This document shows, one piece after another, positions 5,732 to 39,820 of a DNA stretch of 64,000 nt. Source of the DNA: Halichondria panicea (lineage: Eukaryota; Porifera; Demospongiae; Suberitida; Halichondriidae). Below the pieces are notes generated by a model, which worked only from the letters and a program-made list of their open reading frames with translations, was not told the DNA's origin and made no database searches. The first letter of the stretch is position 1; each line of letters opens with the position of its first letter. The stretch covers positions 10,588,632-10,652,631 of the forward strand of contig NC_087377.1 in NCBI RefSeq assembly GCF_963675165.1, in the 5' to 3' direction. The position numbers were made by a program, and so were the translations under genes.

Positions 5732-8700
5732 TCAGTTGTTCAGCTCTTTGACTGTAGTATAAGCTTCATTTACTTCCATATGAATTGGATCTTTGCTTGC
5801 TTCCATTCCGATGAACACCACCTTATTCAATATTTGGTCGTACACTGGTTCAGGTAAGTTAGGTTCCTCGTAGATATGCAGAGAATTGCCTATATCATAC
5901 AAAGTAAGGTGGTTATTATTATATATATATATACAGGCCCAGTTTTTAAACTATAGCATGCAGTATATGTATAATAGTTACAATGAAACTAGTCTCGCAA
6001 GCTAGCCGCTACAAAAATGATAGCCCAATACTAATGAAATATACACCAAAATGTGGTCGTGTCTGATAAATCGATTAATCAGACAAAATAAACAGACACA
6101 GGAACCTACAGATCACTGAAGAGGCAGAGCCACAAGATTTAAGGTGCTTTTGGTCGCTAAAAGTCTCCCCTACAACACATTTTTGGAGGTTATATAATAA
6201 TGTTGTTAATATAGGTAGACCTATTGTCGGGTGAAAATCAGCTTGTTTCGCCTATCCGTTCTCCTCCGGCAGCTGTCTGATTATACGTTCTGTCTGATAA
6301 TTGATACTTTACTCTACCAACTGCCAACTAGATCTACCAACTCCCAACTGCCAACTCCCAACTATACCAACCAACTACCAACTACCAACTATATACCAAC
6401 TCCCAACTGCCAACTATACGCGTTTGAACTATCAAGTAGCAAGTGCGAACTACCAACTACGTGGTTGAACTATATCAAGTAGCAACTACGAACTACCAAC
6501 TCTACGCATTTGAACTATCTGAACTATCAACTACGAGTAGCACTCAGGGCCACCGTAAAGCTACACTACACTGCACTTGCAGCTGAAGTGGTCCCGTACT
6601 AGGAAAAGGGTCACTAAAGTAGAAAGCTAGAATCGTGACTGGTCTGGATCCTAACACCAAGCGGAAGGAGCCATACTTCTCTATAGCCTCGAGACCAGTC
6701 TTTCATTATCTGAAAAGAACGCCTATTATTCTAGGTCAGCACAATAGCATTAACAGTGGATATTGTTGGACTTCAATCTCATTGTGTCTGTTTAGTACGT
6801 GCAGACTATACCAGCTGGTCAAGTTCCAATGTAGAACTCGTTTAGCTGAGTCAGCGAGTGATTAGGCTTGATGATTGCGGTAACAGCAAACTGACACAAC
6901 AAGACAATGAATAACTCATTGCCTTTCCTGCTAGCTGCGGTTACAACAGCTAGTATCTGTGACGTAGGTCTGGAGGAATGCCTTTTGTGTGTATTGGGTG
7001 GTGATAAAACAGGGAATAAGGAAATGAGAAATGAGAAACAAAAAATAGGAAATGAGGAAACAAGAAATAGGTTATGATCGTCAATGATTATGACATTTTT
7101 ATAATATTATAGATACGCAAAAGTAATGAACTGATATCAGCCAAGAAGCTAGTATAGGTGACTAAGTGTTTAGAATTAGTTGAGTCAAGTATATATAGTA
7201 GCTAGCACTGAAAAGTTTCATCGGCACCTCCACACAGTCTTTGTCGATACATTGTAGGAATTAAGTTACCATCACTTCAGATGACACAGTGAGCTTTCTT
7301 TCATTAAAGTAGTATCAGCCTTCACTATAGGCATTGCTTGTGTATGGTAGTGGGAATTGCTTTCTTCACCCAGAAACTGAACCCTGTACGTAGCGAGATC
7401 AGATACCAGACCGTGTACTACCAAACCATGTCATTACTTCCTGCAGCTTTACGACAGGACTGGCAGACTAGAAATTGCTTGGTTTGACAAACAGTATTGG
7501 AAGTTTCTTTGCTGCTACATGTAGATGTTGACATTGAGTCCAGTCAATTGACTATCACTTGCTCACCAGATTGTGAAAAATCGGTAAATGTATTGCCAGT
7601 ATAGAGAAGTTAAGGTAGAGGGTATCACACCGTGTACCAGTTAGTATGCATGCCTGTATAATGCCATGATGGCAGAAGAGCCGACCAGTAGCTAAGTATA
7701 ATTTATGCAAGCTTGTCTTCAAACTTGCTCAGAATTATTCTTGTTTCTCATTTCTGTTCTCATTTCTGTTCTCATTTCCTTATTTCCTATTTCTTATTCC
7801 TCATTTCCTCATTTCTTGTTTCTTATTTCCTCATTTCCTATTTCTTATTTCCTCATTTCTTGTTTCCTTCCCTCATTCCCTGTTTTATCACCACCCCAGT
7901 CTATTGGAGTTGCGTACTCTTCCTAATGAACTCTTGGTCTATACCAGTGGCAGATCCAGAGGGGGTTCTTTTGGTTCAATTGAACCCCCTTTGAGAAAGA
8001 AATGAGTGGGAGGCTCAAGCAACTAGTTAGCAAGTTGTTCCTTTCTTACTAGCTTTCACATGCACTTCTCACTTACCTTTAGTCCTTGTTAGTCCTATAA
8101 AGCTTTGTCTGTGTAGTTTCAGTGACTATGAAGGCTAAAAACTCTCCAGCGTAGTGCATGCAGATTGCTTATGAAAAGTGATGACCTTTTTTAGGAAAAA
8201 ATTCGGTGTGTTAATGCGCATGCTCACTGTTTCGAAGAAGTGACTACCTTTTTTTAGGTAAAATAACAGTCCTTGCACTCGCTCAGAGCCCTGGAACCCC
8301 TCTTTCAAGAATTCTAGATCCACCACTGTATACTATATAGCTAGCTGCACGTTGTAGTAAGCATCACAATGATATTCACGGGTAGTTATGGTTGTTGCGA
8401 GCAATTATCAGTCCAGGACCAATTAAAATGCAATTAGACAAGTTCTATACATTGGAACTAGCCTTGATTCAAGGCCGACATTGGAACTTGACCAGGCGTT
8501 CTTTCAGATAACAAACGGCTGGTCTCGAGGCTAACTTCTCTAAGACTGTGATCATGCATGTACCACTAAAAGTTTTAGCATGCCTCTTGAGTTTACTCTG
8601 GTTTTGCTAGGATTAGATAATTATATCACTCTTCTGGTTTCTTTATAATCATGTCACCAGCCGAGAGTTTGCACTCTAGTGCTGGTGCTCTAGAGCCTCT

Positions 8701-11700
8701 ATAATAATAACTCAAGCCTCAAGGAAAAAGATTTAGTTTTTACTATGCCCTTGTCTCGACTCCAGACTTGCAATTGATCGTAATAAGTGAGTCTGCAATA
8801 GTTTGGGGGCCAGACCTAATAGCTCGGGGGCAAAATCAAGTAAAGCTAGGATTTAATAGGTCTGGAGCAGAGGAGGTTGGTCATGATTTAAACCGCGGTG
8901 AAAAGTGCTATGCAAACCCATGTTTGGCCTCTCCTCCAACCGTCTTCAACCCGCTGAGTCAGCACTTTTGTCTCCTTGCATTCCTGAGCATTTATCCTCT
9001 CTTGTATTACATCTCTTGCTAGTTTATGAATTGTAGTAGTGTAAGCCTATCATTGAAGACAGGAGTCAAAGAATCAAGGAAAGTACTATTAGTTTCTGGC
9101 TCATTGATTCGGGTATGACTCGTTTTTTAGTGTGACTGGGTATTGTTAGCATCATCTGCTACTAGTATAGAGTGTTACAATCGTTTAATTGCAGCCGTCT
9201 GGCTTTAGCTATAGGACAGCAACTTTTCATGCTTTCCTCTTCTCCGTGCACACACATTCCTCCGTTGAAATGTGAACAACCTCCTCTGGGCCTGGAGACT
9301 CTTGCAGCATTTCCCAGAGGAGATCCGATATGCGTGCACGAATCATTACAAGTTCAGTGCATTGTGGCAGGACGTTATCATGTGACTGCAATGACCTCAA
9401 TGCACTGAACTTGTAGTGTTTCGTGCACGCATGTCGAACCTCCTCTGAGCAATTCCGTGTGCTCTAGCGGAATGTGCATGGCCAGAGCCAATGAAATGCA
9501 TATCCTATGTCATATGATTTTTAACCCAATGAAATGCGAGTATTGCCTCTGTGGAATTTGGATTACAGCCAATGGAATTTGGATACAGCCGGAGTATTGC
9601 TACATCTACTCCTTCTTTATAACGTCTAATATCACAAGTCTCTACATTCCAAGAGCACACGGAAGTGCTGCAAGAGTCTCCAGACCTCTTTCTCCTCTTC
9701 CCCCTCCCCCCTCTGAAAAAAGGTCTGGCCCGCAGACTACATCTGCAATACGTAGGCATCCTGTGGCTTTGTTGCCTGTCAGGCTCCGCCCATCTACTGA
9801 CTGCCCACGTTCATTTTCACTGTGCCACCGTCAGCGAGGCAGGCTCTCTCCTTTTTCTTAACAACGGTTAGTTCTCTCTTTCTTGTTCCTCCAACTTCCC
9901 ATATTTTATCTTATTGACCTGTGACAAAACGGAAAAAGGAGAGGCTGCGAAGGAGGCTACTGCTGACGTGACATTATAGATACAGGAAAAGAAACAGGAA
10001 AGAGAGGGATTGGCAACAAAAGTGCCTCGAATAGCCATCCGTGTTTCCCTGTGGTTTAATCGAGGCCGCCTAATTCAACGTTAGAAAAATGGCCAAAGAC
10101 ACAAAAAAGAGACAAACGATTGTTTTACTGTCAGTATAAGAATTTTACTGCTTAACTGTTTTATTACAGGGTACACTACATAGTTAAGCAGTTCTAGCTA
10201 TATTATAGTAGTAGGAGGTACATAGCGTCGCATGTACCTCGCGTCGCATGTACCTCTAGCTACTTCACAACAATCGAAATTATGTTTTTGTCGTATCTAA
10301 ATGATGCCTACAAGCAAGTCGAATAGAAGTGTTTGGGGGGCTTGGAAAGGTCTGTATTTACTGTAAAAGGTTAATTATTGTTCTACCGCGTTAGGTGGGA
10401 AACACAGATGCATGGCTCATCAAGTTCTGTATTGATTTTATGTGTAGCTTATGAGTGCACGTGATTCGTTGCCAATCTCTCTCTTTCCTGTTACAGTATC
10501 TATATGCATGGTGACATGCAGCTATATATTTTAGACTTGAACTTTTGGCATACATTATTTTTAACAACAATCATGGGGTCGATCATTACCCACTCTTTGA
10601 GTTCTGGATTCTGCCTGCATGCAGCAAAATTAATTATAATGCATCATGATAATTATAATGTTTGTGCTATTAGTAGCTTTATGTTATGTAGCTTGGCACC
10701 TCCACCGAGGCATCAGCACCTGCGGTGTTTTCATTATAATTATTGGCCCTCCTACATTATTTATAATTATGCCACAATTATACTGGCATGCACTGCTATT
10801 CCTTTGATCTCAGATGTCAAAAGGCAACAAATATGCATCGTATAGCGTGTATATTTCGAGTGTATAACTGTTTGTGGTTTTCCCTGATTAAGCATGTATA
10901 TATATATACTGCGAACATTTTATACCCACGAATTTAATGTCGCATGCATGCTGCAGAAAGGCTCCTATTCAAACCACAAAAACCTTTCTTAACGGTCATT
11001 CCTAAAATATACCTGCTATACGGTATGTAGGTGTATATACTGTATATATATGCATGCTTACCAGTTTTCTGTCGGGCTTTGCATTTCTTGCATTTAAAGG
11101 CAATGAATAGAGTTACTGGAACTACTGTGCTTAGAATTCCAAGAGAAGATCCAATCCCTCCAATAACGACATCTGTATTAAAAGTATTATAGTGCGTGGC
11201 AATAATTGTATAGTTTCTTACAATTATATAGATCAATTTCTCCGTCTGGTCCTAGATTCACTGTATTGCATTGTGTGCTGTATTTATTGTGTTCTCCTTT
11301 ACTCTCAAGCCTTAATCCAGTGTTTCCTACAAAACATATCAAGGTGCATGGTATTTGTCTTTAATTAGTGAAAAATATGGCGAGGGAAACACTGCATGAA
11401 ACTAATAATTCAAAGCGATCAATAAAAATTTAGAGAGTTCTAAGTAGATATCTTTACCTGTGAAGGATATCGATAATTCAGGTGAATTTTGGGCCATGAA
11501 TTGACTTTCAGTTCTGACATTAAGTCTTGTTGTTGGAGTGTAATCGATTATATCATTGTCTAAAACATACACAATTCCTATAGTACTGTACATTGACCCA
11601 ATAACACACTGAATGTTAGTGAGATTCATTGACGTGGCAACTTTAGTGATTTCCAAAGAAGAAAGTTGTGAATTAAAATGATATGGTGGCGGTAAGTATG

Positions 11701-12055
11701 AGTGTGGATATATTACACTATCAATAATCCACGAAGGTGCATCATGCCTTTCTTCTTGGCAATCACAACCAAACCAAGCGGAGTCTCCAGAAAGCACATG
11801 TATGTTAGTAGGCTGCGATCTAAATGTACATGATCCTGCAAAATAGCAGCAACACAATCAGTGTACACATAGAGAGACACCTTTTACTTTATCACTCCAT
11901 GCATGTTATTCACATGCAGCTGTAGCTAATGTTATAATTATCTCTTAATCATACATCGTGTCGTATTCCTTACTGAAAACATTTTGCTTACCTTTTACTC
12001 CACATAGACATAATATGTGTGATAGTAACAGCAAAGCGTAAGTGACTCTCATCAT
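5732..12055 (-). CDS. Gene B: single-Ig membrane receptor with three-tyrosine cytoplasmic tail
   Basis: Five exons: 12055-11992, 11835-11458, 11326-11222, 11172-11062 and 5889-5732. All are joined in phase 1 and give exactly 271 residues plus a stop. Residues 1-21 are a signal peptide (MMRVTYALLLLSHILCLCG). Residues 22-147 hold a variant Ig domain (FGCDC, then SWIIDSVIYPHSYLPPP, then NIQC). Residues 148-182 are a short stalk. Residues 184-208 are a membrane segment (VVIGGIGSSLGILSTVVPV) followed by the stop-transfer KCKKCKARQK. The tail exon carries Y226 (HIYEEP), Y236 (EPVYDQI) and Y263 (NEAYTTV), which align with gene C. The last intron is 5.2 kb and full of repeats, so the tail join is the weakest part; frame, phase and similarity to gene C support it. 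Likely role, inferred: surface receptor signalling through SH2 proteins. Confidence 0.8.
6300..6520. repeat. CCAACT-type simple repeat
   Basis: Imperfect tandem 5- to 7-mers based on (C/A)CCAACT, such as ctaccaactcccaactgcc, run through this stretch and degenerate to the right into 'gaactaccaact'. Confidence 0.85.
6995..7896. mobile_element. TIR element, about 0.9 kb
   Basis: The left end tgggtggtgataaaacaggg is mirrored at 7877-7896 (ccctgttttatcaccacccc). The inverted similarity continues inward through purine-rich 'gaaatgagaaac' and its complement at 7740-7870. No transposase frame is visible. Confidence 0.7.
9313..9450. mobile_element. Hairpin MITE
   Basis: The two arms (cccagaggagatccgatatg... 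and its near complement ending ctcctctgagc) share 'tgcgtgcacgaat' and 'acaagttcagtgcattg'. One arm of the same family reappears at 63940-64000. Confidence 0.7.
9976..10504. mobile_element. MITE of the GGGATTGGCAAC family, copy 1
   Basis: The inverted ends contain 'aggaaagagagggattggca' on the left and its complement near 10467-10492. The family recurs at 28258, 32833, 34079 and 42206. Confidence 0.7.
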
Positions 12056-12906
12056 AAAGACCAACCACGCTAACGATATTTATATTTTAGTTATATGGAG
12101 CTGTTGTAGGACCAAACAGTTTTATAGGCTGCAGTGTTATTTAGCTCGAGTTTCAGAGGCTATAATAATACACACTCTTGGTGGTGCATTTGTTTACCAA
12201 ACTATTATAATTGCACAATAATTGCAAATTGAATGTGTCAAGATCAAATAAAATAACATGCATGAATGCTGAATCGAGGAGAAATATAGTTCAGCTTGTA
12301 ATCCATAATTATTGGCTATTGCATCCAGTTGTTATAGTTAACGTATTATAGTTGCCACGAGGCAAATTATAGTACTTCAGTTCTATAGTTGTATAATTAT
12401 AAATATTCTGTACTGTGATAAGCGTACAAGTGCATGAGGTATATATATAGGATTGAGAGCAAAGGTCACCGTTAGAGTGCCCTTTGTATACTTGTTCTGC
12501 ATGTGACTTCTGTCCTCATACAATCTTGACACTGCCTTGTTTACACATGATACAAAATTATACTGCAGTGCAAACTGAACTTTTGTTTATATATAATTAT
12601 TCATTTTCTCCCAAAAGCTGTCGCTTATACTTTGCTTGTTTCCTTTAGGGACATTATAAGTTTTGTTCAATAACAATTATAATGAATTAATCATGCACTT
12701 ATAGACTAAGTTTATAAACTATTTCCGCATTAGTTACTGGGTTATTTATCTATGTTGATAACAACAGGCAGTGCAGATACAGTAACTATACTCTGACGCA
12801 CGCAATGACAACAGCGAGCAATGATAAACTTCATTGGTACTGACATGAAACCATCAGGAGTGCACTCCTGATCCCATCCATAACAACTAATCATTTTCCA
12901 GTTTCT
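12056..12906. other. Intergenic, upstream of gene B
   Basis: AT-rich sequence directly upstream of the gene B start. I see no gene, RNA or clear promoter element in it. Confidence 0.5.
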
Positions 12907-13550
12907 ACACGTGTCTGTTCGATACATAACTTTTCTGATAGAGCTATGTACGCCGGTATACTGCCGTGTATATGCATGTAAACTGCTGAAGAGTTACATA
13001 AAGAAAAGGTTTTCCATGAAGGTTTAAATCACTTTGTACTATCTGTGTGAGGGACTGGAGATTTAGAGTACTTAGACAGTTAAGAGAACGTTGACAATAT
13101 TCACTTTTCACAGTCGATAGCACAAATCAAAATACCAAAAGGCTAAAAACATGTTAAGACCAGGCTAGGCCCTGATAAATTATGCATTTTCACCCATTAT
13201 TCTATTTTTTATCTTGAAAAATCTGCCTCATAAAAAATCCGCCGTAAAAATCTGGCCAAAAAATGCGACATAATAATTATAGACAAAATTAAGACATAAA
13301 CACAGCACACAACTGACACATGACATAATTATGATTCTCAGTGTTATGTTGCTGAACTGATCCATAATATTCACCTTGAGCATTTTTTTGCTTACTGACT
13401 TGAACTAATCACCTTCAATCATTTTTTGCCATGAAAACGTTGTTACTTTACCAAAAATAGACATTGATACCTATTATTTATTAGGTAATCGTAAATTTGT
13501 TTTTGATTCCACAAGTGGCCCACTTGTGTGTACTGCAGTCCATTGAGATC
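12907..13550 (+). pseudogene. Relic of the Calx-beta gene F (intron 5 and part of exon 8)
   Basis: 12907-13165 matches gene F intron 5 at 47113-47425 (for example 'gtgagggactggagatttag' against 'gtgagggaacggagatttag'). 13490-13550 matches part of gene F exon 8 at 49010-49070, including 'acaagtggcccacttgtgtg'. The intervening exons 6 and 7 are gone and the exon fragment is shifted out of frame. It keeps the same orientation and the same position relative to the receptor copy at 15025-18155 as gene F has to gene G, so both come from one segmental duplication. Confidence 0.75.
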
Positions 13551-13559
13551 AATGAAAAT

Positions 13560-14235
13560 CATACTAAAAACGATTGATTGCAACTCCAACTTTGGGGGTT
13601 TTATTGTTTAGTTATTGTCCTTACATAATTACTATGTGACTCTCAGCATATCCAGGGGCGTAGGGAGGGGGAGGGCTTTGGGGGCTGGAGCCCCCCCTTT
13701 CTCTGCAAAAACTACACTAAGAGCCCCACCTTCTCTGATGAGTCTTCAGCCTGGGAATTATACTGGTATAGATTAGTGGCAGACAAACAGCATGTCCAAG
13801 AGCTAGCTATACTATACTAGTAACTTTGATTCTTTAGTGCAACTAGCTACGGCTAGCTAGCTAGCTAGCTTTAGCAGTATTATTAATTGAAGCAAGGTGT
13901 GGCTATTTCTTGCACATGCGCAATGAGCCATTAATTAGGGGGTGTGGCTTCCGGTCACCGAAAAATTTCAGCGCTCAGCCCCCCCTTCCTCAAATTCCTG
14001 CCTACGCCCCTGATATCCCCTACAGAATAAACGGTAGGTTGTGTCTGATGAGCGATTTTTTTGTCTGTTCTTACCGTTTATCAGACACTAGCACATTTTC
14101 AGCTCTTGAAGACTTAGTAGTTGATATTTATCAATTCTTTTTTGCATACATTCATAGTAACACATGCTTGATCAGATGGTGCAAAAGAAAATTTTTTATC
14201 ACTGCTTATTTCCTTAGAATGAGTGTCTGAACATG
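13560..14235. repeat. Interspersed repeat, inverted copy at 41470-41695, carrying an insertion
   Basis: The flanks 'attgtttagttattgtccttacataatt' (13605-13632) and 'cttaccgtttatcagacact' are found in reverse complement at 41560-41695. The copy here is interrupted by the insertion 13653-14012. Confidence 0.75.
13653..14012. mobile_element. Short TIR insertion with a visible empty site
   Basis: It starts CAGGGGCGTAGG and ends CCTACGCCCCTG. It is flanked by ATATC at 13648-13652 and 14013-14017. The paralogous copy at 41.6 kb runs straight through the site (ggggatatgctgag on the plus strand), so this 360-bp piece is an insertion. The TIR resembles hAT-type MITEs, but the duplication seems shorter than the usual 8 bp. 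Confidence 0.75.
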
Positions 14236-15024
14236 CATTGTGTCTGAATATAGATGCCTTACTCTAGATGCAAACGGAAGTGTAAACCAATTAAGCACGT
14301 GAAAAATGCTGCAAATCTGATGGGCGCCACTATAGCGGTGCTAGAACAAATCCCAGATAGGCTTGCAACCTGACCTCCCATCAGGGATGGTCAGGCTACG
14401 CCCAACTATAGCACCTCACGAATACCTTAGTTAGCTATAACCCACAGAAGGACTTTAAACAAAAATCGAGGCTCTGATTTACATGAAGTATGGTGCTGTT
14501 TGGATAGAGGGATAAAACAAACTCATGACTAGTCAGATACAAATTAAAACCTGCTGGTGTGCTGATGCCTGGGTGGATGTACATGTCATGCTTGAAAAAT
14601 CTATAGAGATCTGCCCTGCTAGCTGAATCAGCATTTAAATATACAGTAGGTTTGGTATCTGACACATGCAATTGTTTACGGTATAATTATTTCATTTCAG
14701 CCTTCTTATGAAAAACTCTTGCATGAATCACGATGCCTTAATTTTTGTGGCATAGAGGCAATTGAGCATAGTTCACACATGAATGCACAACAGAAAACAT
14801 GCAGCATATCCATGAGTGCAATTGGTAAAAAATGGGCCTAAACGTCATGTATACATGTAGCTTAATTGTAGGCGTTGTATCCAACACACTAATCTGTTCA
14901 TCTGTTATATAGTAAGACCACACAAATAAATTCTTTTTCACAAAATGGAAACTTTAGAAACTCACCATTGGCGTACTCTTTGATAGGGTGCTCTCATTTG
15001 AGTTGTTAGGTCAATAGATGATTC
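14236..15024. repeat. Duplicated 3' flank of the receptor copy
   Basis: 14410-15020 is a diverged copy of 51450-51950, the 3' flank of gene G (shared 'catgatgccttaatttttgt'-type stretches and 'gtaagaccac'). No gene is seen in it. Confidence 0.7.
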
Positions 15025-21622: not shown

Positions 21623-21631
21623 GTGCAGTTG

Positions 21632-22254: not shown

Positions 22255-22326
22255 GTGCAGTTGTACCTATAGTATACCATAGACTATGGTTGTACTGAGG
22301 CTAAGTGGCTAATGATGAGCCACTTA

Positions 22327-23457: not shown

Positions 23458-24406
23458 ATGTTTTTGGTCCACAACATTATATGGATCATTCTGAGTGTCA
23501 GCTTTCTAGGTCAGTCTTACTTACATTGCATGCATGCATGCCATAAGTTATTCATCATTGGCAATTATGTTTTTACATTTACGAAAGGTACTGACGTGGT
23601 TCAAGGGAGTAGAATTGCTAAGCTAATTTCGAAGGACTTAAATTACCACAACTTCAACAGTGCAATAAAATTTTCTTGGAAATTAATCTGTGATCCTAAT
23701 GGATCATATTATTACAATTTGAGTGTCATTGCTTGCCAAGGTAGTTCATTTCAAGAAGTAAGAGGACCAGAAACTATAAACCAAAGATATTTTCAGTATG
23801 ATTCGATCTTGTTTGAAGCTAACAGTTCATTGTTTACCCGTATTGAGACACTGGATGCTGGTGATAAGCTGAGCCTCGAATTTCGTTTTAGAAGTAAGTA
23901 TAAATCCAATAAACTATAGTATATTAAAATTATACACGTTCATGCATGCAGATGTAACACAGGATTATCATATTGATGCGAGTAAGGAAGTTTGTTTGAA
24001 TACAACAAGAACATCGTCACAAATGTTAATGGCACGATGGGCGATTACACCAGGATCGAGTGAAGATTGTACGTGTCCACTTATTCGCAATTTTGTTAGT
24101 TGTAGCTGTATCCGCAACAACGAAACAATTTTCAATGTAGACTACAGTGAAGATAATCGGATGATATGTTGGAGAAATCTTACTAAGGAAATGAATAGGA
24201 CACAGTTTTTTCTTTTCTTTGAGGAAGTAGACGTATGTTCGACCATCAGACAAATTTATTGGAGTGGTGCAAGGGTATTTATAAGTTCTGCTATTAAAGG
24301 TGAGTTTATTGACGATTATTATTATTATATTTATTTGATCCTTCCAGCTGAATTTTTCATTGTGACATTCCTCAACTGTTGGTTACTTGCGAATCTTTTA
24401 GTTTAG
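23458..24406 (+). CDS. Gene E: small GPI-like surface protein made of the novel cysteine domain
   Basis: Four exons: 23458-23509, 23588-23893, 23952-24299 and 24348-24406. All junctions are phase 1, giving 254 residues. Residues 1-17 are a signal peptide (MFLVHNIIWIILSVSFL). Residues 18-235 are the two-exon domain shared with gene A exons 4 and 5: an AKLISK segment near the start, then DCTCPL, SCSCIRNN, and RMICWRNL near the end. The last exon encodes only a hydrophobic stretch (FFIVTFLNCWLLANLLV) with no cytoplasmic residues, preceded by small residues (SSA). This fits a GPI-attachment signal or a very short membrane anchor. It has no Ig domain. The family is not one I can name. It is probably displayed at the cell surface or released. 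Confidence 0.82.
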
Positions 24407-28250: not shown

Positions 28251-28257
28251 ACTATAT

Positions 28258-28742: not shown

Positions 28743-28879
28743 ACCCAAACTATACTACTCATGCAGATCCCGATTAACCATTCCCAGAGACAGAAAACTA
28801 CACGATCATGATTTCAACTGGACACAAGCCAGTAGCAGATCGGAATCGAGATATGTTCAAAAACCATGCAGGTTCAATG

Positions 28880-29300: not shown

Positions 29301-29670
29301 GCAGATCAAAGCAATCCAGTGCTCAGTATATGGCATGTTAATTGCATCACTGCCATGGCTACCATATATTGCACTGCATTATAATTATGGCATAATGCAC
29401 TGGATTATATGAACTTGCACTGTGTGTAAATGCAGTAGATTTCTTTAAGAGATATCCATTTGGGACTTATGCCCCACCATCCCACCCAATACTCAGTTGG
29501 TCCGTTTTATAGGCTACTACCTTTACAACTACTAGTGGGAAGAAAACCTAAAAAATTTACTATGGAATTCAGCAAAACTAATGAATACACTAAATTCCTT
29601 CAAAACACATGTCTTTTATTACGATTTATATGACCAGTCAGACGAGTTTAACGTCATTGGGCAACAAGTT

Positions 29671-29806
29671 AGTTATTGCCGGCGCCCTCGTGCAACATGC
29701 CATATATTGCACTGGATGACATAATGCCCTCGGGGCCTGCGGCCCTCGGGCATTATATTGCTCCAGTGCAATATATGGCATGTTGCACTCTGGCTGGGCA
29801 ATAACT
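29671..29806. repeat. Long palindrome (MITE-like)
   Basis: The arms share 'gcaacatgccatatattgca' and 'ataatgccctcggg' and meet in a GC-rich loop. Fragments of the same repeat occur near 29285-29410 and 24728-24880. Confidence 0.85.
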
Positions 29807-29809
29807 AAT

Positions 29810-31045
29810 ACTTACTTAGCTAGTAGGTAAATTATACTTCAGTACACTTTACGCACTTGTCAATCTAATGCCCCACCCCCCTACCGGGGATAGGTGGGGA
29901 TTAGACCAATCACATGATCTAATACCCCTACCTTTGGGCATGTTATTTGGTCTAATCCCCCTGGTAGCCCCTATAGTACAACATGGGAGTTATCGGTGGG
30001 GATTAGACCTGTATCAATTCACACTATAGCTATTTCTTCATGGTGAGAAGATAACCGTCAAATTATTTGATTGACATCATGTGACGATCTTAAATTAACC
30101 TTTGACCCAATGCATGCATGCATCAGGTGATCTGTCTAAGGTAGGGGAGCAACTTCAAGTCTAATCCCCAATTAACGACGAAGAATCATTGAGATCACTG
30201 CATGCATGCATGGATGGTATAATTATTTGTTTTGTCTCTTCTTTATGTTTCACACTCTATATATGTTTAATTCGCTGGTGGGTCTTGCAAGTGATCGACA
30301 ATGATTCGTTATAGTGTACGTCTGTTTTGTTTCATTGATCCAGTACAAAGAGAGATTCTGTAGTCACTTGTAGGGTAATATATACCCAAGAACACTAATA
30401 ACAGCATTCAATAACAATGATGTAGTTGCTGTATTTCAGATCAGTATACGCATACACAGCTCACATGCAGTACAGTATACATGTATAATTATTTGTACCA
30501 TGATGTGCTCTGACACTAAGGAATATCCATTGAAACTCTCAGGATACTCCAGGGTACATGGCTGTGGTCAGCCTGAAGCCCTCCCTCCACCCTTTAAGAC
30601 CCTCTCTTTAAAGAACACTACCGTGACAACAATTGTGGAAAGCACAAAAATGTGTACACCCACTCGGATCACACTGTGAAAATAAATTCTTCAGTATCCA
30701 CTAAAACTACACGACCGGATTTCAAAACTGGGTGTCTGAAGTTGTAAATGTGGTTTGTCAAGTGCAAGCACATGCATGCACACAAAACGTAAACAGTGCA
30801 TATGCACGGCAGAGATCAAAGAGTGTTTACTACTACTCCAGTTGTAAATGGGTCTTCTAATTGCTTCTAGGTGTTCATAGTACAAGTACAAGCTACCTGT
30901 ATACGTGGACATCTGAGTGTATATTGTTTGTACCAGGAGTGCACTCCTGTTTGTACTAACCTCGTGCATTGTATGTATTCCCTCAGGGAATACATAGAAC
31001 TGCCCTCGGTAGTACAAATCCAATACGCCCTTGTACAACTAACTA
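29810..31045. other. Intergenic
   Basis: It contains three short repeats of a 'ggggattagacc' motif (29890-30010) and scattered GCAT runs. No gene is recognised. Confidence 0.5.
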
Positions 31046-31049
31046 TCCA

Positions 31050-31260
31050 TGGTTGGTCAACGTGTAACACCATGCATGCATGCGCCTTCCCAAAGTCCCC
31101 TGTCCCGAGCTCCTTGCCTAGTTTGATACTGTCCCAGGGGAAGTCCATTGGCACTTCGGCATGTTCTTACCTCAGGCACTTCAAGATGTCCTCTGTACCC
31201 TGCGCTCTTGTCACCCAATCTAAACTGGTGAAGCTCTAGATCTTCAGCTGAGAAAACGAA
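31050..31260 (-). pseudogene. Fragment of a receptor tyrosine kinase (juxtamembrane and glycine loop)
   Basis: On the minus strand, a frame starting near 31170 reads MDFPWDSIKLGKELGTGDFG. It has the W...I.LGK.LG.G.FG pattern of the first strand and glycine loop of tyrosine kinase domains. Just upstream, in another frame, is LGDKSAGYRGHLEVPE ending at a possible donor, like the segment preceding the kinase domain of such receptors. After the glycine loop the frame loses all kinase character (no VAVK or later motifs). No catalytic lobe lies nearby, so this is a decayed fragment. Confidence 0.6.
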
Positions 31261-31802
31261 TATGCATCTATCTTTCATAGGATATATATATATAATTTCT
31301 GGATTCGTTTTGAGTTCACTTGCGTGCAAATAACATTCTCACATCACATTACTGAATTGCTGAGTGACTAGACGAAGCTTTAATGCTAATACTAGTCCCG
31401 TTATGTCAACTTCCTGCTCAGAAATAAGCAGCCAAAATACTGCATTTGGCATTCTATTACAGTGTCATGCATGAACAACATTATTTTGCAACTGCAAACC
31501 ACATCAAGTGTTCTGTAGAAAGAGCAAAAAAACTTTATTTTGGCAACGGTATAAACAGCTCTATGTAATCGTATTGATTGTTTCCTATGCATGGCATAAG
31601 GAATTTATGTAAGCGAAAAATGGGGTGTGATATTTTGAGGTATAATTATATTCATCACATATGCACAGGAGATCAACCTAGAAGTGTTTACTACTACTAG
31701 GAATTTACTGTTTACTATATTCATCAGTTAGTCTAGACATCCTTCCCCATTCTTCATTCAAAAATTATTTTTATCTAGCTGTATACAGCAGAGATAGCCA
31801 GT

Positions 31803-32440
31803 ATGCATTTGCTAAAAATGATTATTCTTGTGGCTGCTGCACATGAAGCAGGTAAGAATTTTTGAGCTCATGGCTCCCTGCTAACTATATATATAACCTT
31901 TACAGCTACCTTAAGTGTAACAATGAATTTTGAGATACTCGACGTTAATCAGACAGTAAACAGCAATGCGGAGCAGTTTAATATAGACTCTCCGCAGATT
32001 GTGGAACTGATATGTGAAAATGCCGGTACAAAATCCATCCCTTCTTGGTCTATCAATAATGTTACTTACTACTGGCAAGATGTACCACCAGGCCATACAT
32101 TCAATGTGAAGAACATGACGCTTGAAATAAGTCGATTGTGTGCAAAGCATAGTGAATATCAATGTTTTTTTTCATACACTTTGCAAAGCAGGTCCGTAAT
32201 TCTACTACAAAATGGTAAGAGCATAGCATGTAATTGTATGTCTCTAATAATATCTGTATGATAATAATGACTCTATCAAATGTGACGTGTGATGGTAGTG
32301 TTATACACTCATATTTCACCACAGGTAGTGTGCCGTTAGCCTGCAATGATGAGACTACGCAAAATAAAGCAGTTTCCAATAACACAACGCCTTTCATTAT
32401 AATATTTTTTGCATTAATTTTGCATTCACTGTATTTTTGA
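31803..32440 (+). CDS. Gene D: short single-Ig protein with GPI-like C-terminus
   Basis: Three exons: 31803-31851, 31906-32214 and 32325-32440. Phase 1 joints give 157 residues. Residues 1-16 are a signal peptide (MHLLKMIILVAAAHEA). Residues 17-119 are a variant Ig domain: first cysteine in ELICEN, then SWSINNVTYYWQDVPPG, then the second cysteine in EYQCFF. It has several N-glycosylation sites (NQT, NVT, NMT). The last exon is a short linker (NKAVSNNTT) and a terminal hydrophobic run (FIIIFFALILHSLYF) with no tail, as in GPI-anchored proteins. The YYWQD block is nearly identical in gene C, its closest relative here, 5 kb downstream on the same strand. It could be a decoy or ligand-type partner of C; that is inference. 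Confidence 0.85.
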
Positions 32441-32479
32441 AGGTTTAAACCAGCAGAAAAAAATTATGATTATAATTAT

Positions 32480-32690
32480 AGATCCACAACTAGCCCTGCA
32501 CTATCATTATTCTTAAATAATAGGCAGCAATCGTGTTATCAACGAAGGGGTATATAAGGATGTTAGCTAAGAAACGAGGGCCTGAGGGTCCTGCATGGTA
32601 ACAGTAACAATGCTGGTATAAGCTCTCGATCCCATTGCAATGGCCGGTCAGGGAGAGTAGGTAACTAAAGGAACTAGAGGTAACCAGTTG
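32480..32690 (+). repeat. Duplicated block downstream of gene D (copy at 36520-36690)
   Basis: It shares 'aggcagcaatcgtgttatca', 'gggcctgagggtcctg' and 'gtaacagtaacaatgctggt' in order with 36540-36670. The two copies bracket the space between genes D and C. Confidence 0.85.
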
Positions 32691-32832
32691 CCAGGCCTCA
32701 TTCTCAAGCTGTTTACAAAACTGTATAAAGTGCATGGCCTCTCGGTTCTCGAACATCCCACCCACTCACCCAACTCCCAAGTTGTTCGTCCCAGCCATGA
32801 GTATAGGCTATGTTGTCTACGGTACATACCTC

Positions 32833-33066
32833 ATGGGACCATAGATAGAGTAGAAGGGGGATTGGCAACGGAAGCTAGTGGTTCACGTGATGTTTTACAA
32901 CGAGTCTATGTAGAGCTCAGAAACAATCCGTGTTTCATTTCTACCCCGGGTAAGTTTAGACCCCACGTTGGAAGTAAGCCTCAATTAAAACCGCGGGGAA
33001 ACACGGATGGTACTTCGAGTGTACCGCGTTTCCAATCCCTCTCTACTCAATCTATGATGGGACCAT
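32833..33066. mobile_element. MITE of the GGGATTGGCAAC family, copy 3
   Basis: The inverted ends 'gggaccatagatagagtaga' and the complement ending at 33066 bound 234 bp. The inner 'atccgtgtttc' and 'gaaacacggat' are also inverted. Confidence 0.8.
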
Positions 33067-33344
33067 ATGCAGTGCTGGAGGCATATTAGTCGTATGTATG
33101 GGCAAGATCCTGCTTCTCAGTTAAGAGGGTTTAGGGTGTTAGGCATCCTAAAATTAGGCCATCCAAGTGCAATGGATGGAAGTGTAAAAATTAATAGGGC
33201 CAGTATATTCTACGCCATTATAGATATAATTAATTGTCTGGCAATGTAAGTGATGCTATGACAGCAGGATTCAAATTTATGATAGGATAGGATCCGCAGA
33301 TGACTTATGCCTACCCACAAATAGGAGCCACGTCTGGGAGCTAC

Positions 33345-34078
33345 CGAATTGATAACTTGTTATGAACACCGTTTAGGCTTGGGATGAAGTTTGAATATGG
33401 TTAGCTATAGCCTTTGAGGTCATACCTTTCACTGTGATAATAAATAACAAGGGAAAGTTTGGGACACAAAAACAAATTGTTTAATTTTGGAGTAGTTTCC
33501 CACAGTGTATGTGGTTTTTCTACTTAGTCTAGTCATAATTATCATAGTAATGAGACATGAAACACTGAAAACACTGCTGGTTTAGCTAGGAGAGCCTGGG
33601 AATCAGATCCTCTTACTTGGTAACAGTGAAGGCAATGAATATCACCATGCATGCACATGTGTGTCTTTCTTAGCTACATGTAGTATATTGCGTAATATAA
33701 ATTATACTGCTATAATTATCTTAAACTGTCCGCACACACCAATAGCTTCTACTTGCTCCAAACTTCAAAACAGGCCTCTGCATGCAAATAATTATGGTTA
33801 CCAATCCAATATAAGAAATCGCCAGTCTACGAGGCAGTAGACCAACACCTAAGAGTCTAAACATGGAAGGTCCCCACACACCGGCCCACTTCCACTGACC
33901 ATCTCCTTATTGAGTCCCCCTCTATACCATCGCTATACCATGGACCCAAGCTTCACTATACTCAGATCTCTCAGTCATTTCCAGAGCCAGCTAGACTACA
34001 CGATCATGATCTCAACTGCATGGACACAAGTCAGTATAGCAGATCGGAATTAAAATATGTTCAAAAATCATGCAGGTT
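33345..34078. repeat. Dispersed non-coding block, copy 3
   Basis: It follows copy 1 (27700-28250) closely, including 'gaggcagtag' and the 'actacacgatcatgat' stretch also at 28795-28810. No gene. Confidence 0.75.
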
Positions 34079-34940
34079 CAATCATAGATTGAAGAGTTAG
34101 AGGGATAGGAAACGGAATGGTGCACGTGATGATTTTACATTGAATCTGCAGTGGAGCCTCGAAAACAATCCGCTTACGCCCTATGAACGAGGCTACTATG
34201 CTGGGTAACTCCAGAAAGTTGTGTTTCCTCGAGACATCATCTCTTTCAGCAATTTATAACACGCCTAGTCCATGAGCCACGTGTAGTACTTGCTAAGGCC
34301 ATACCAAGTTAATATCATGTTTCTCATCATTCTTAACCAGAAATCGTAAGCGAGAAAGCGCAACAAAAACAAACACAGGCTGAAAAACACAAGGATTTCT
34401 TTGTATTTGTAACCGGAAATGACCATCATGTGATACAATTTGGAAGTTGTAAGTAATGAAATAAAGGTGGTACATGACCCCACTAACTTGCCTCCGCAAT
34501 AACAAGAAAGAAAAGAGATCTAGAGCTCTAGAGCTACATTTTAAAGTCTAGCACAGAGACACTTGGCAAAATATGCAACTTTCTACATGTGAAAAACTAA
34601 ACTACAAGGTTCAAAGTTTTTGTGTGTGTTTTTAGTAGTAAGGGAGGTGATGAGAAACAGGAAATTAACTTGGTGTGGTCCAATGACTGACCACACCCAG
34701 TAAAAAGAATAATTATGTTCCCAAGGCTGTTTTAGAGCTAATGGAACATGTAACGTGTAAGCGTGCTGGTTATGACTACTACAATTATAGGTATAGACCT
34801 TGAAATATAAGTGAGTTGCACGGACTAAGCACTTGGCATTGTTGTGATGGCCTTGATTAAACCGCAGCGTAGCGCGGATGCATGTATTCAAGAATACCAA
34901 CCGTTTCCTATCCCTCTAACTCTTCAATCTACGATTCAAT
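34079..34940. mobile_element. MITE of the GGGATTGGCAAC family, longest copy
   Basis: The left end 'agattgaagagttagaggga' with 'taggaaacg' is mirrored at 34900-34935. The TIRs enclose about 0.8 kb without a recognisable protein. Confidence 0.8.
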
Positions 34941-35429
34941 GAACATCGCTAATATGTGACAGGCTCTGGGAAAACCAGACTATTGGAGCAGACTAAAATT
35001 TTGGTGATTAATGTACCAAGTGATAGAGCAGAGCATTGCCTACACAATGATATGCTTAGTGTTCACATACCTAGTTTCATACCCGAGTCATGCGCGTTGG
35101 AAACTCGAAGCCGTAAAATGTAGTATCGAGAAAAACGGCTCTCAAAGATTGCTTAATTAGGAAAAATAAGGTAATAGCGAAGGTTTGGACGAAGCGTTTC
35201 GATGGAAAGAGTTGGATTTAGAGCATCAGATTTTACAGAGAGGTAGTAGAAGGACTGTAGATACTTATACATCAATAACATTTTATTTGAGATTTTATAC
35301 TGTAGGCATAAATTTAGCTGTAGCTCAATACTAAATTCTGCTCCAATAGTCTGGTTTTCCCAGAGCCTGTCACATATGAGTGGTATATAGCTAATGATGG
35401 AACGATAATCACCTTCCCACACGCGCACT

Positions 35430-35660
35430 CTTTATAATTATTCCTGTGATGTTTATATTCGTTACTGCGATGGCATGCATCAACATGCATGAGAAGACGA
35501 CGACCACGCATCATGCAGTAAGTTCTTGTATATAGTGTGATACTTTTAGTTGTCACCACCTGGGAATTTTGTTTTGTTGTGGAGGGGAGCTACTGAAGTG
35601 GTAACTTGTTATGAATACCATATTTTAGGCTAGGGATGAGGTGGTTAGCTATAGCCTTTG
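35430..35660. repeat. Dispersed non-coding block, copy 4
   Basis: It shares 'cgttactgcgatg', 'cgaccacgcatcat', 'gttgtcaccacctg' and 'tagctatagcctttgagg' with copies 1-3. Confidence 0.75.
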
Positions 35661-37599
35661 AGGGTATAACCCTTTACCGTTCAGCCGCACAAAATCTGGA
35701 ACAGTTCCATCACTTTAGTTTGCATCTGAGCCCAACCCACCAAATTAGCTTGATGTTATCTCCGCCCCAAATGAAGTGGCTAATGGCTTGTAGAGATGGG
35801 CGTGGGTCAATGGCTGTGCACAAACTAACCATCGATTTTATGCCTTGCTGCTGCCTCGATGGAAGTATGTGTGGCCTTTAAAAGCTGCACTCTGGTCAAC
35901 TAAGCTGCTTAGCAAGCATGTAGACTATTGTAGAGCTTGTGTCCACTTGTGAAGTGCCTGTGTACACAAATGGCTTGCTGCTTCCTCTTCGAAAATATTC
36001 TATGGCTACCAAGATAGTCCAGAGGGTCTACCAATGGATACTACTCAGTCCTACATGCTGTATAGCTTGTTTTAAACCTTTTTTTAAGTGTCCTAATTGA
36101 ACAGCTCAGCAGAACATCAAAGCATTCATGATACTATCCAATCTGCCACAGAATCCAATATCGTGCAACATTCACAAGTTGATAGCACGCTCCCTCCCAG
36201 ATTGTTGTTGTAAAAATTACAACATTTTGACCGGTAAAGGGATACCATTCACTATGAAATAATAACAAGGGAAATGTTTGGCCACGAAGACAATTCTGAG
36301 AAAATTTTAGATTTTCAGAGTAGTTTCCCACAGTTTTTCTACTGTCTAGTAACATAGTAATGAGAAACATGCAATAGCCAGCCAATTTCTGGGAATCTGA
36401 TCCTTACTTGGTAACAGTGAAGGTAATGAATATCACTATGCATGCACGTGTGCCTTGCTTGCTAGCACATTAAATGCTCGTAAATGCACTTAATTATGTA
36501 TCTTAATTTACCCGCACACACCAACATTACTATCATTATTAGGCAGCAATCGTGTTATCAGCGAAGGGGTACAAGGATGATAGCTAAGAAACGGGGGCCT
36601 GAGGGTCCTGGTAACAGTAACAATGCTGGTATAAGCTCTCCCATTGCAGTGGTCAGGGAGAGTAGGTATCTAGGGGAACTAGAAACTGCAGCAGACTGAA
36701 TCTGCATGAACTGTGCATGCTAATAGTCACAAGCAGCAGTCCTCTTGCTATAAGATTGAAATGTGAGTATTTTTAGGAGCATGACCAACAATCTGTTTCA
36801 AGTTCTGGAACTGGGGACCTGTCTACTGCATGAGTTCTCTTTCAAGCAGCAACACATCCCCAACAACTGGCATGGTGGGGTCTAAATTTATTACTGGCAT
36901 TTATCCTTGAACTCACACTGACTATATACTGCTGTGGAGCAGCAGGTAGGGTATTACATCTATAATTGACTGTAATCACACCCTTTGCCTGTATATAGGA
37001 GGTTAATTCTTGCACTAAATGCATTGTTCGTGCAAGGGCGACGTCAGTTGTCCGGAGTTTAGAGGTTGCAAGTACACTATAGTTAGATAGTAAAAGCAGT
37101 TGGCACAAGGCGTGCTGTTCGCTACAACAAAGGAATCCGCTATTTAGAGAGTCCGTTATAAGAGGTTCCACTGTATATGTACCTATATTATATATAATAA
37201 AGCTATGGAAGTATATATAGTGTCCTGGGTCACATTATTATATAACTGAAAGCCTCAGGTATGACACCATACTCATTTGCACTTCATTTCCGGGAAATGA
37301 AGTGCAATTAAGTTCAGCAGCGAGATGACAGTAAATAAATAAATCATTTTGTCTCCTGCATGCCTGGATTTTCTTTCCACGTACGTTGGAGTATAATTAT
37401 ATAGACAGCCTCGAGTTAAAGTGCATGTGTGTACACATAATTTATATCATTTTCAGTTTATTCTGAAAATGTTTCCGGTTTGGCTGTTTTCTCAATATTT
37501 CTTACAAATCATAAGCGACTGTAGTAAACTGATTCTTCAGCTAACAGCTATATATACTGAAAGCAAAGCAAACACTGTGATTATACCATAATTATAGCC
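35661..37599. other. Intergenic, upstream of gene C
   Basis: It includes another fragment of the dispersed block (36230-36460), the second copy of the D-downstream block (36520-36690) and the right end of a pogo-like MITE (about 37140-37166). I see no gene. Confidence 0.5.
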
Positions 37600-39820
37600 A
37601 TGCAGGTTCATGCCAGTCATCTACTTTTGTTGCTATTCAACATATCAGCGCTAGCTGAATGCTTCACATCTTCAGGTGTATATATATGTATACTAAATTA
37701 TAATTATGCATGTATGCATGCATGCAGTAGTATATATAAGATAGTTTGCATGGCAGGCAATGATTTTCACTGGCCACCAACATAAGGCAACTTGTAACAA
37801 CTTTTTTGCAGAAAATTTGTTTGGTGCAACAAAAGAGAGCTACACATGTCCAGGTGAGACAGTGGAACTCATTTGTAACATGGATTGCTTAACTTCGTAT
37901 TGGATTATTGATGGAACGTATTACTACTGGCAAGATTTGCTGCCTGTAGGATATACCTACAGGTTTCCATCCACTCTCATCTTGGATGCAGTCAATGCAG
38001 ATCTGAATTTTACTAGGTATCAGTGCCTTGCCTGCAATATCGAAAGCTCCATAATCACTTTAGTTGTTTTAGGTGAGCTATATTATAATAATTATAATTT
38101 ATGCATGCATGCATGTGTATAATTATACTATACACTTTGGGCATTAATTGGGCCTATAATTATTGCATACATGCAGCCGTAAAAGCGAGTATATCTAGTC
38201 CACATGCAGCTATATATATATATCGCTGTCGTAATAGGCCAGTATAAAGTAGCAATTACAGCCATTCCGTGCATGTTATAATTATTACATAACACGGCAC
38301 AAATTAAGCCATTGCAACGATTACTTACTTTTAGGTACCTGTCCTGTCAATGTTTACAATCAATCCAAAGTAACATTAACGGCTACACTTGATTGTGATA
38401 TCATAAGTAAGACGACACATGCTGGTATCAGTTCTACTGACTCAGACTCTATGACATCCTCGACTCATTTTAAACCAATTGCAAGTCAGTATATATATAT
38501 CTATATATAATATACCGTCCTTTTACTCACTCATAACATGACATGTATATAATTATTACTTATTATGCATGTCTATAATTATCATTTCAGCAATCGGTCC
38601 ATCTTCAAGTAACAGTATGCCTAGAGGCACAACATCACTTTTAGCACCAATTAATCGAAGTACAACAGTGCATAGCATTGCACCCACATCTCTATGTGAC
38701 GTAGAAAGCTGTGTGTATAACTCTTCAGGTACACTGTAAAAAATGATGTGTGGTTTTCACGCAAGTGCGTGACTATTGTGGCAACTATCAGGAAAAAACG
38801 CAAGAAAAAACGCACATTTGCCACAATAGCCACGCACTCTGCGTGAAAACCACACATCATTTTTTACAGTGTATAACTTGTAAGCCCTTATTTCATTTAA
38901 CACAGGACATGCAGTATATAATTATAATGTCTGATATTATTAGTGGCCATGGGAGTATTAGCAGGAAGTATCAGTGGCGCACTTTTCATCTTGTTGTGCA
39001 CTGGTCTCACTGTGATTTGTATTTCAATCAGACGACGTCATGTTAAAAAAGGTACATAATTATGCATGGATATCCGGTAATCATACAGAATACTCCATGC
39101 ATATAATTTTTATAATTATCATATCCTATAGTAATGAGTGCATGTAATTATAAAGAGGAGTATCCATGTAACTATATATGGAGTTGTAGTACAAACCACG
39201 TTTCGGTATAAGTGTGTCATAGTACGTCATCATCAAACGACATTTTAAGTGGGTGCGTATATATAGTGTATATATATAATTACAATTATTAGTTAAAAAT
39301 GATATCAGCACACACGCCAAACAATGCACAAACAATGCAAACAATTTATATGTGGTCTTGCTGTGGTTTATGCCGTTTGGTTACCCGAGGCATGCGTGGG
39401 TGGCAACAGGTATAGTACAAGTATACTATAGTGACAATATACTTAGTCCAAGATGTATATAGAACGGAATTATGTGCGTGGGAGTTAGATAGGTTGGATA
39501 CTCCTCTTTATGAACTTCTGCCAATGCATGGTTTATACACAATAACACAACAACGTGTTGGCACCACCACTGTACTATTCGTATTTAAGTGTTGTGAGCA
39601 TCATTAAAAACTCATGTATGTTTCCATAGACCGAACAAGTCATATATATGATGAGGTGCAATCTCCCGAGACAATTGAACCTGTGTACAGCGTTGTAAAC
39701 ACAATTAACAATCGTCAACTTCAAGATGTGAAAATGATTAACAACGAATGTTATACTATCCCCCAAAAGAACAACAGCACACAATTTGAAATAAGCTACT
39801 GTTCAGCTTACGAACTGTGA
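37600..39820 (+). CDS. Gene C: single-Ig membrane receptor with stalk and tyrosine-based tail
   Basis: Six exons: 37600-37675, 37812-38072, 38335-38484, 38591-38728, 38944-39051 and 39630-39820. All are phase 1, giving 307 residues. Residues 1-20 are a signal peptide (HLLLLLFNISALA). Residues 26-112 are a variant Ig domain (ELICNMDC, YWIIDGTYYYWQDLLP, RYQCLAC). Residues 113-208 are a Ser/Thr-rich stalk with glycosylation sites. Residues 209-235 are a membrane segment (LAGSISGALFILLCTGLTVI) followed by RRRHVKK. The tail holds Y251 (HIYDEV), Y264 (EPVYSVV) and Y286 (NECYTIP), matching gene B, plus Y301 and Y305 at the very end. Y251 and Y264 are 13 apart, close to ITAM spacing, but the motifs are YxxV rather than YxxL/I. 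Likely role, inferred: activating or docking receptor for SH2 proteins. Confidence 0.88.
38732..38871. mobile_element. Tc1/mariner-type MITE right after a splice donor of gene C
   Basis: A 140-bp, almost perfect palindrome (CACTGTAAAAAATGATGTGT and its complement) is flanked by TA on both sides. It starts three bases into the intron between the stalk and membrane exons, so it makes up most of that 215-bp intron, and the donor context (AG|GTACACTG) is part element. Confidence 0.9.

What the first reader, a model, noticed from the sequence alone, without database searches (positions are those of the whole stretch)
5732..39820. Linked family of small Ig receptors sharing a three-tyrosine tail: candidate sponge recognition or immune cluster
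Seen: genes B and C are on opposite strands 26 kb apart and have diverged Ig domains. Their separately encoded tails still align as HIY[DE]E[VP], EPVYxx[IV] and M..NE.YT, with the first two tyrosines 10 (B) and 13 (C) residues apart. B, C and D share a W.I[DN]...YY or VIY block in the Ig domain. Known: immunoreceptor tails use paired YxxL/I motifs, and the Hydractinia allorecognition complex is a cluster of diverse Ig-type receptors, some with such motifs. Inferred: this is a comparable, possibly undescribed sponge receptor family combining signalling (B, C) and tail-less (D, E) members. The motifs are not canonical ITAM or ITIM.
Basis: partly seen in the sequence, partly recalled or inferred. 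Interest (0 to 1): 0.9.

Follow-up and report, generated by a model that had tools for sequence, protein, structure and literature searches.

The report
Linked Ig receptors with tyrosine tails
An animal genome that may be a sponge's carries a compact cluster of small immunoglobulin-domain surface receptors whose inner tails have conserved tyrosine sites, side by side with relatives that look lipid-anchored and tail-less; this looks like a recognition system, but nothing yet shows what it recognises.

Summary
B and C are five- and six-exon genes (all introns GT-AG, phase 1) for single-Ig type I membrane proteins with tyrosine tails. A third such gene, G1, lies 94 kb upstream of C; B occurs twice in a 14.4 kb duplication. 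C and G1 tails are clearly homologous; B's is weaker but supported. D is single-Ig with a GPI-signal-like end. E shows no sign of being Ig: it carries two other domains, also found in gene A below two Ig domains, and ends GPI-like. The set tail-Ig, GPI-Ig, GPI-E occurs twice. Single-protein genome searches place these families at this 97 kb locus only; best outside match E 0.25.
Polymorphism, sponge origin and allorecognition could not be tested. Best reading: a locus of recognition receptors with tyrosine-tail and GPI-type members, a new variant of a known kind.

The parts
5732..12055 (-). Gene B (5 exons: 12055-11992 signal peptide, 11835-11458 Ig, 11326-11222 stalk, 11172-11062 transmembrane, 5889-5732 tyrosine tail); 271 aa
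   Evidence: spliced open frame, all introns GT-AG and phase 1; identical protein in copy B' 23 kb upstream
37600..39820 (+). Gene C (6 exons: 37600-37675 signal peptide, 37812-38072 Ig, 38335-38484 and 38591-38728 Ser/Thr-rich stalk, 38944-39051 transmembrane, 39630-39820 tyrosine tail); 307 aa
   Evidence: spliced open frame, GT-AG, phase 1; Ig fold by AlphaFold2 and Foldseek; paralogue G1 with the same six-exon layout at G000:C1:10531913-10533220
31803..32440 (+). Gene D (3 exons: 31803-31851, 31906-32214 Ig, 32325-32440 GPI-signal-like C-terminus); 157 aa, no tail
   Evidence: spliced open frame, phase 1; last 15 residues hydropathy 2.47 with no charge; no further tail match better than E 3 in the 264 kb read; paralogue G2 at C1:10537824-10538378
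23458..24406 (+). Gene E (4 exons): two domains E1 and E2 of unknown fold, then a GPI-signal-like C-terminus; 254 aa
   Evidence: spliced open frame, phase 1; E2 matches gene A; paralogue E' at C1:10533593-10534244 (-) beside G1, read by frame and not spliced; Pfam: no family
1..2479 (-). Gene A, first part (continues to window -664): signal peptide, Ig 2334-2011, Ig 1693-1367, X1 1260-925, X2 880-536, X3 468-208 and more, then transmembrane and a short tail without tyrosine; 720 aa
   Evidence: nine-exon spliced open frame, phase 1; first Ig passes the Pfam ig cut-off; X2 matches E2, X1 matches E'1

Best explanation
The locus encodes a cell-surface recognition system of small single-Ig receptors. 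Signalling members (B, B', C, G1) are type I membrane proteins: signal peptide, one Ig domain, a stalk, a transmembrane segment and a tail with tyrosines in conserved settings. On ligand contact the tyrosines would be phosphorylated by a Src-type kinase and recruit SH2 proteins such as an SHP-like tandem-SH2 phosphatase, which the genome appears to encode. D and G2 (Ig) and E and E' (two other domains) would sit on the outer membrane by a GPI anchor and act as ligand-binding co-receptors, ligands or decoys for the tail-bearing members; A carries Ig and E-type domains in one chain, which suggests that the two kinds work together. Shown here: gene structures, homologies, linkage, the repeated trio, the predicted Ig fold of C, the tyrosine positions. 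Inferred: surface location, GPI anchoring, phosphorylation, SH2 partner, co-receptor role and what is recognised.
For: Complete phase-1 gene models. Tail homology C/G1 and B/G1. Ig fold of C: best of five models pLDDT 74; PDB matches led by CD4 D1, IgLON, Robo, CRTAM, 13 at E <= 0.001; the profile of the five window Ig domains matches contactin-4 at 1e-9. Trio present as G1-E'-G2 and E-D-C. D, G2, E, E' end in hydrophobic 15-mers (hydropathy 2.03-2.47), while B, B', C, G1 have their transmembrane segment 64-70 residues before the end. Genome searches with the B and C tails and with B, G1, D and E proteins: the best match outside the locus is E 0.25 on C17, then E 1.28 on C15. SH2 exons: 71 matches of 89 scored; two SH2 exons, then a tyrosine phosphatase exon, in N-to-C order within 1.7 kb on C3:8404573-8406287 (the first SH2 match is partial and runs past a stop).
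Against: No expression, protein or interaction data. The tail style occurs on other membrane proteins too, so the tail does not mark this family. Ig domains are abundant elsewhere in the genome, in other clusters on C4, C6, C9 and C1:17.7-18.0 Mb (149 matches of 150 scored, 762 first-look candidates), so an Ig cluster is not special in itself. GPI anchoring rests on hydropathy alone and signal peptides on inspection. Genome searches use a limited first look and take single proteins only, so diverged relatives can be missed. No canonical ITIM, ITAM, ITSM or hemITAM in any cluster tail. Four of the five Ig models were poor (pLDDT 36-43). The tree of Ig domains resolves nothing (0 of 5 inner branches supported), so C/G1 and D/G2 pairing rests on pairwise identity.
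Confidence: 0.5

Rival explanations
1. Ordinary cell-adhesion or developmental Ig proteins. The tyrosine sites are endocytosis signals (YxxPhi, AP-2; recalled) or generic SH2 sites, and there is no role in self or microbe recognition.
For: Best PDB profile matches are neural and adhesion molecules such as contactin, Robo and CEACAM; YxxPhi numbers in the tails are within shuffle expectation; Ig and tail diverge equally, no sign of selection on the ectodomain.
Against: Searches confine the families to one locus with recent and older duplications, and linked sets of tail-bearing and GPI-like genes recur, which is unlike a stable adhesion gene.
Confidence: 0.3
2. Allorecognition locus: polymorphic Ig receptors matched between individuals, comparable to the Hydractinia allorecognition complex or the Botryllus fuhc.
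For: Ig cluster with tyrosine core motifs (YxxI/L/V) and tail-less neighbours, as reported for Botryllus FF/FcoR pairs (passages of PMC12065747); Alr genes cluster on one chromosome in Hydractinia (passages of PMC11876637).
Against: No allele data; only ten gene copies found; the two B copies are identical in protein; no ITIM or hemITAM.
Confidence: 0.12
3. Pattern or symbiont-recognition receptors, one of several expanded receptor families in the genome that share a tyrosine-tail style.
For: Other membrane proteins with tyrosine tails: on C1:12.0 Mb with FN3 and Sushi exons upstream and several tandem genes on C17, two with a Pfam-unknown domain in neighbouring frames; joining of those exons was not modelled.
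Against: Pfam names no lectin, SRCR or other microbe-binding domain in the B, C, D, E and A pieces or in full-length G1.
Confidence: 0.25
4. The 23 kb repeat of A and B is an assembly duplication, not two pairs of genes.
For: 14.4 kb at 99.67% identity; 18 of the 24 substitutions lie in one 0.7 kb end.
Against: The copies differ at the A and A' C-termini, and further long repeats, many at 88-98% identity, occur upstream, so duplication is frequent here.
Confidence: 0.3

Closest known systems
Botryllus schlosseri fester / fester co-receptor (FF/FcoR) pairs in the fuhc locus
   Same: Receptor genes without signalling motif encoded next to Ig receptors with tyrosine tails, some with only the core motif YxxI/L/V (passages of PMC12065747).
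   Different: FcoRs are 520-610 aa with a V-type Ig, sushi and two C2 Ig domains and can carry ITIM or hemITAM; the proteins here are 271-309 aa with one Ig domain and neither motif. Homology not tested.
Hydractinia allorecognition complex (Alr genes)
   Same: Clustered Ig-superfamily membrane proteins, with ITIM/ITAM motifs reported on candidate genes (passages of PMC12065747 and PMC11876637).
   Different: Alr1 and Alr2 are highly polymorphic and allele sharing allows fusion; 40 Alr or Alr-like genes reported. Here ten gene copies, polymorphism unknown; no Alr sequence was available for comparison.
Vertebrate ITIM/ITAM immunoreceptors (paired receptors; recalled)
   Same: Single-pass Ig receptors with tail tyrosines in YxxPhi settings, beside tail-less relatives.
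   Different: Canonical ITIM, ITAM, ITSM and hemITAM patterns absent from all three distinct cluster tails.
Other tyrosine-tail membrane proteins of the same genome (C1:12.0-13.5 Mb; C17:5.23 Mb)
   Same: Tails with EP[IV]YEE[IV] and a later [NST]xxAY or similar near the C-terminus.
   Different: FN3 and Sushi exons upstream in the one C1 case examined; ectodomain of the C17 EPIYEE genes not identified; their tails also hold canonical ITIM matches (LEYESI, SAYNLL or IAYNLL).
Sponge aggregation factor genes and Geodia Ig-domain receptor tyrosine kinase
   Same: Candidate or known sponge recognition molecules; the Geodia kinase carries Ig domains (passages of PMC11999971 and PMC12018476).
   Different: No kinase or Calx-beta match in the B, C, D and E pieces scanned. 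The neighbouring Calx-beta gene at 45.6-49.6 kb belongs to a family with 645 first-look candidates genome-wide.

Membership tests
Immunoglobulin superfamily | B- and F-strand cysteines and core tryptophan | tested here: met
   invariant C21, W30, C71 in 5 of 5 window Ig domains
Immunoglobulin superfamily | Ig fold | tested here: met
   C domain only: best model pLDDT 74, the other four 36-43; the 50 PDB rows listed are Ig-domain proteins or antibody and receptor complexes by title, TM to query up to 0.75
Immunoglobulin superfamily | Pfam Ig model above cut-off | tested here: inconclusive
   met by A's first Ig only; B weak (E 0.085); C, D and A's second Ig no Ig match as single sequences; full-length G1 none; the five window domains together match PDB Ig chains
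ITIM receptors | [SIVL]xYxx[ILV] in the tail (pattern recalled) | tested here: not met
   0 of 3 distinct cluster tails
ITAM receptors | Yxx[IL]-x6-12-Yxx[IL] (pattern recalled) | tested here: not met
   0 of 3 distinct cluster tails
hemITAM receptors | [DE]GYxxL (pattern recalled) | tested here: not met
   0 of 3 distinct cluster tails
Botryllus FF/FcoR-like pairs | tail-less and tail-bearing genes as neighbours | tested here: met
   D beside C; G1 and G2 with E' between them
Botryllus FF/FcoR-like pairs | V-Ig, sushi, two C2-Ig ectodomain | tested here: not met
   one Ig exon in B, C, G1; no Pfam match, Sushi included, in full-length G1
Allorecognition locus (Alr, fuhc type) | high polymorphism and control of fusion or rejection | not testable with these tools
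   one genome only
GPI-anchored proteins (D, G2, E, E') | hydrophobic C-terminal signal without cytoplasmic tail | tested here: met
   last 15 residues hydropathy 2.03-2.47, 0-1 charged residues, 4 of 4; no GPI predictor was available and attachment is untested
Sponge gene | the genome is a sponge's | not tested
   organism not named; Ig, SH2 and Calx-beta families ring in 0 of 14 control genomes but are plentiful here, in keeping with an animal

The most novel reading that the evidence does not exclude
A sponge self or non-self recognition complex built from cassettes of three linked genes: a signalling single-Ig receptor with a non-canonical tyrosine tail, a GPI-anchored Ig partner and a GPI-anchored partner with a locus-restricted ectodomain. 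This would be an independent counterpart to the Alr and FF/FcoR systems and would place tyrosine-tail paired receptors in sponges.
Probability: 0.12. Interest if true: 0.88.

Novelty: new variant of a known kind. Interest (0 to 1): 0.52.

Why it matters
If the genome is a sponge's, this is a compact locus with complete gene models, tail-bearing and GPI-type partners and a fused Ig-plus-E protein, which gives named genes and exons to test for polymorphism, graft response and SH2 binding. It also shows that EP[IV]YEE[IV] tails are a wider style in this genome, so tyrosine-tail signalling can be studied there across several membrane-protein families.

Tried and rejected
Canonical ITIM, ITAM, ITSM or hemITAM: looked for, absent from the three distinct cluster tails. 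E as an Ig gene: no support. Tail unique to the family: rejected. Faster divergence of the Ig exon than of the tail: not seen; C/G1 Ig 48%, tail 47%, transmembrane exon 36%, stalks 22-35% identity; dS is high or undefined, so dN/dS gives nothing. Fold of the E2/X2 domain: model too poor (pLDDT 48.8), not searched. Ig tree: unresolved. The downstream flank beyond the window was not read.
Full report
WHAT IS THERE. The window is G000:C1:10588632-10652631 of a 131 Mb genome in 39 contigs. I read the window and 200 kb upstream (264 kb, 8822 ORFs of 20 aa or more). A profile of five window Ig domains found ten Ig exons of this kind in that stretch at E below 0.001: C, D, B, two in A, their copies in B' and A', and two new genes upstream, G1 and G2. 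Spliced models are clean: C 307 aa, G1 309 aa, B and B' 271 aa, D 157 aa, G2 163 aa, E 254 aa, A 720 aa. Every intron in them is GT-AG and phase 1, as in many animal Ig genes (recalled).

SIGNALLING AND GPI-LIKE MEMBERS. C, G1 and B have a transmembrane segment 64-70 residues before the end and a tail with tyrosines. D, G2, E and E' instead end in a 15-residue hydrophobic stretch (hydropathy 2.03-2.47, 0-1 charges), the form of a GPI signal; no GPI predictor was available. The tail profile finds no further match better than E 3 in the 264 kb. A has a transmembrane segment and a short tail without tyrosine.

THE TAILS. C: HIYDEV, EPVYSVV, NECY, SAYEL. G1: HVYEEL, EPVYCEV, NECY, PAYQ. B: HIYEEP, EPVYDQI, NEAYTTV. 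C and G1 are plainly homologous (in the genome search C finds G1 at E 0.002). B is supported by shuffles (0 of 5000 with G1, 2 of 5000 with C), by being the best non-self hit of the C+G1 profile, though only at E 0.015, and by the shared gene layout. Each distinct tail holds two YxxPhi sites, but 15-26% of composition shuffles do so too. No canonical ITIM, ITAM, ITSM or hemITAM is present.

THE TAIL STYLE IS WIDER. EP[IVM]Y[DE]E occurs 7 times in the genome against 1 for the reversed control; none of the seven lies in this locus. I read five of the seven. L047 and L048 on C1 have a transmembrane segment, EPVYEEV and a later NQAYGPLGL; the 4 kb upstream of L048 encode FN3 and Sushi domains on the same strand. 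Two are on C17, in tandem transmembrane-tail exons with EPIYEE[IV] and [SI]AYNLL; their ectodomain was not identified. The one on C6 is in a frame without a visible transmembrane segment. The C17 tails are as close to G1's as B's is (1 and 0 of 5000 shuffles), less close to C's (213 and 168 of 5000) and B's (177 and 192 of 5000). Whether this is exon shuffling or convergence is open.

THE IG DOMAIN. As single sequences only A's first Ig passes a Pfam cut-off. C's domain was modelled from the five window domains (pLDDT 74 for the best model, 36-43 for the other four) and matches CD4 D1, IgLON, Robo, CRTAM and antibody V domains. The five-domain profile matches contactin-4 at 1e-9, perhaps driven by A. 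Ig exons as such are common in the genome: 149 matches of 150 scored, from 762 candidates, in clusters on several contigs.

LINKAGE. The order is G1(+) E'(-) G2(+) A'(-) B'(-) A(-) B(-) E(+) D(+) C(+), over C1:10,531,913-10,628,451. Pairwise identities are highest within types: C-G1 48%, D-G2 43% (query residues 14-93), D-G1 34%, C-D 29%; E-E' 32-34%. So a set of three, tail-Ig, GPI-Ig and GPI-E, is present twice. A holds two Ig domains followed by E-type domains (X2-E2 and X2-E'2: 0 of 3000 shuffles; X1-E'1: 7 of 3000; X1-E1 not significant, 882 of 3000), a fusion which hints that Ig and E chains act together. The A-B pair is a 14.4 kb duplication at 99.67%, 18 of 24 substitutions at one end; an assembly artefact is possible. 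Genome searches with the B and C tails and with the B, G1, D and E proteins gave, outside this locus, only E 0.25 (C17) and E 1.28 (C15). These searches have a limited first look, and profiles were not accepted.

MECHANISM. Shown: gene structures, homology, linkage, a predicted Ig fold for C. Inferred: surface location, phosphorylation of the tail and SH2 binding. The genome has 71 SH2 exon matches of 89 scored and, on C3, two SH2 exons followed by a tyrosine phosphatase exon in N-to-C order within 1.7 kb (the first SH2 match is partial and runs past a stop), consistent with an SHP-like phosphatase. The GPI-type partners are most simply co-receptors, ligands or decoys.

COMPARISON. Passages of PMC12065747 describe Botryllus pairs in which a receptor without signalling motif is encoded next to an Ig receptor with ITIM, hemITAM or only the core YxxI/L/V. 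The present locus is like such pairs in layout but lacks the FcoR domain architecture and the ITIM/hemITAM features; homology was not testable. Passages of PMC11876637 and PMC13119343 describe larger complexes in Hydractinia and Podocoryna (40 and 22 genes). Of the sponge papers looked into by passages, PMC11999971 and PMC12018476 mention sponge Ig proteins in general terms, PMC12723187 counts 20 Ig-like domains in an Antarctic sponge transcriptome, and PMC5450542 on Amphimedon grafts does not contain the word immunoglobulin. My literature searches listed no title or abstract start that describes such a sponge locus; I read listings and passages, not whole papers, and subscription papers are mostly not held.

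LIMITS. No expression or allele data exist here. 

Noticed in passing
window 23458-24406 and C1:10533593-10534244: E and E' encode two domains unknown to Pfam (C.CP..C.C..ICW pattern in E2), matched in the genome search only at this locus, inside gene A and A' as well.
   Followed up: partly
   Followed up: no
L041 and L051 (C17:5227476-5234736): Tandem membrane proteins with tyrosine-rich tails, two with canonical ITIM matches (LEYESI; SAYNLL or IAYNLL), others with repeated YSxL or YEGV; a tandem domain in L051 is unknown to Pfam.
   Followed up: partly
L047, L048, L050 (C1:13.37 and 12.02 Mb): Transmembrane proteins with a short tail EPVYEEV..NQAYGPLGL; FN3 and Sushi domains upstream of L048.
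   Followed up: partly
window 45663-49657 (+): Calx-beta gene beside the cluster (one exon pair passes the Pfam cut-off); Calx-beta is hugely expanded in this genome (645 first-look candidates).
   Followed up: partly
window about 15.0-17.2 kb and 51.9-53.7 kb (-), also C1:10581847-10582152: FN3-like gene in three copies at 90-95% protein identity.
   Followed up: no
C1:10388632-10588631: Many further direct and inverted repeats upstream of and within the cluster, 0.7-4.9 kb at 78-99.9% identity in the list.
   Followed up: no
C1:10564947 (A' last exon): A and A' differ in their last residues and stop position although most of the 14.4 kb copy is nearly identical.
   Followed up: partly
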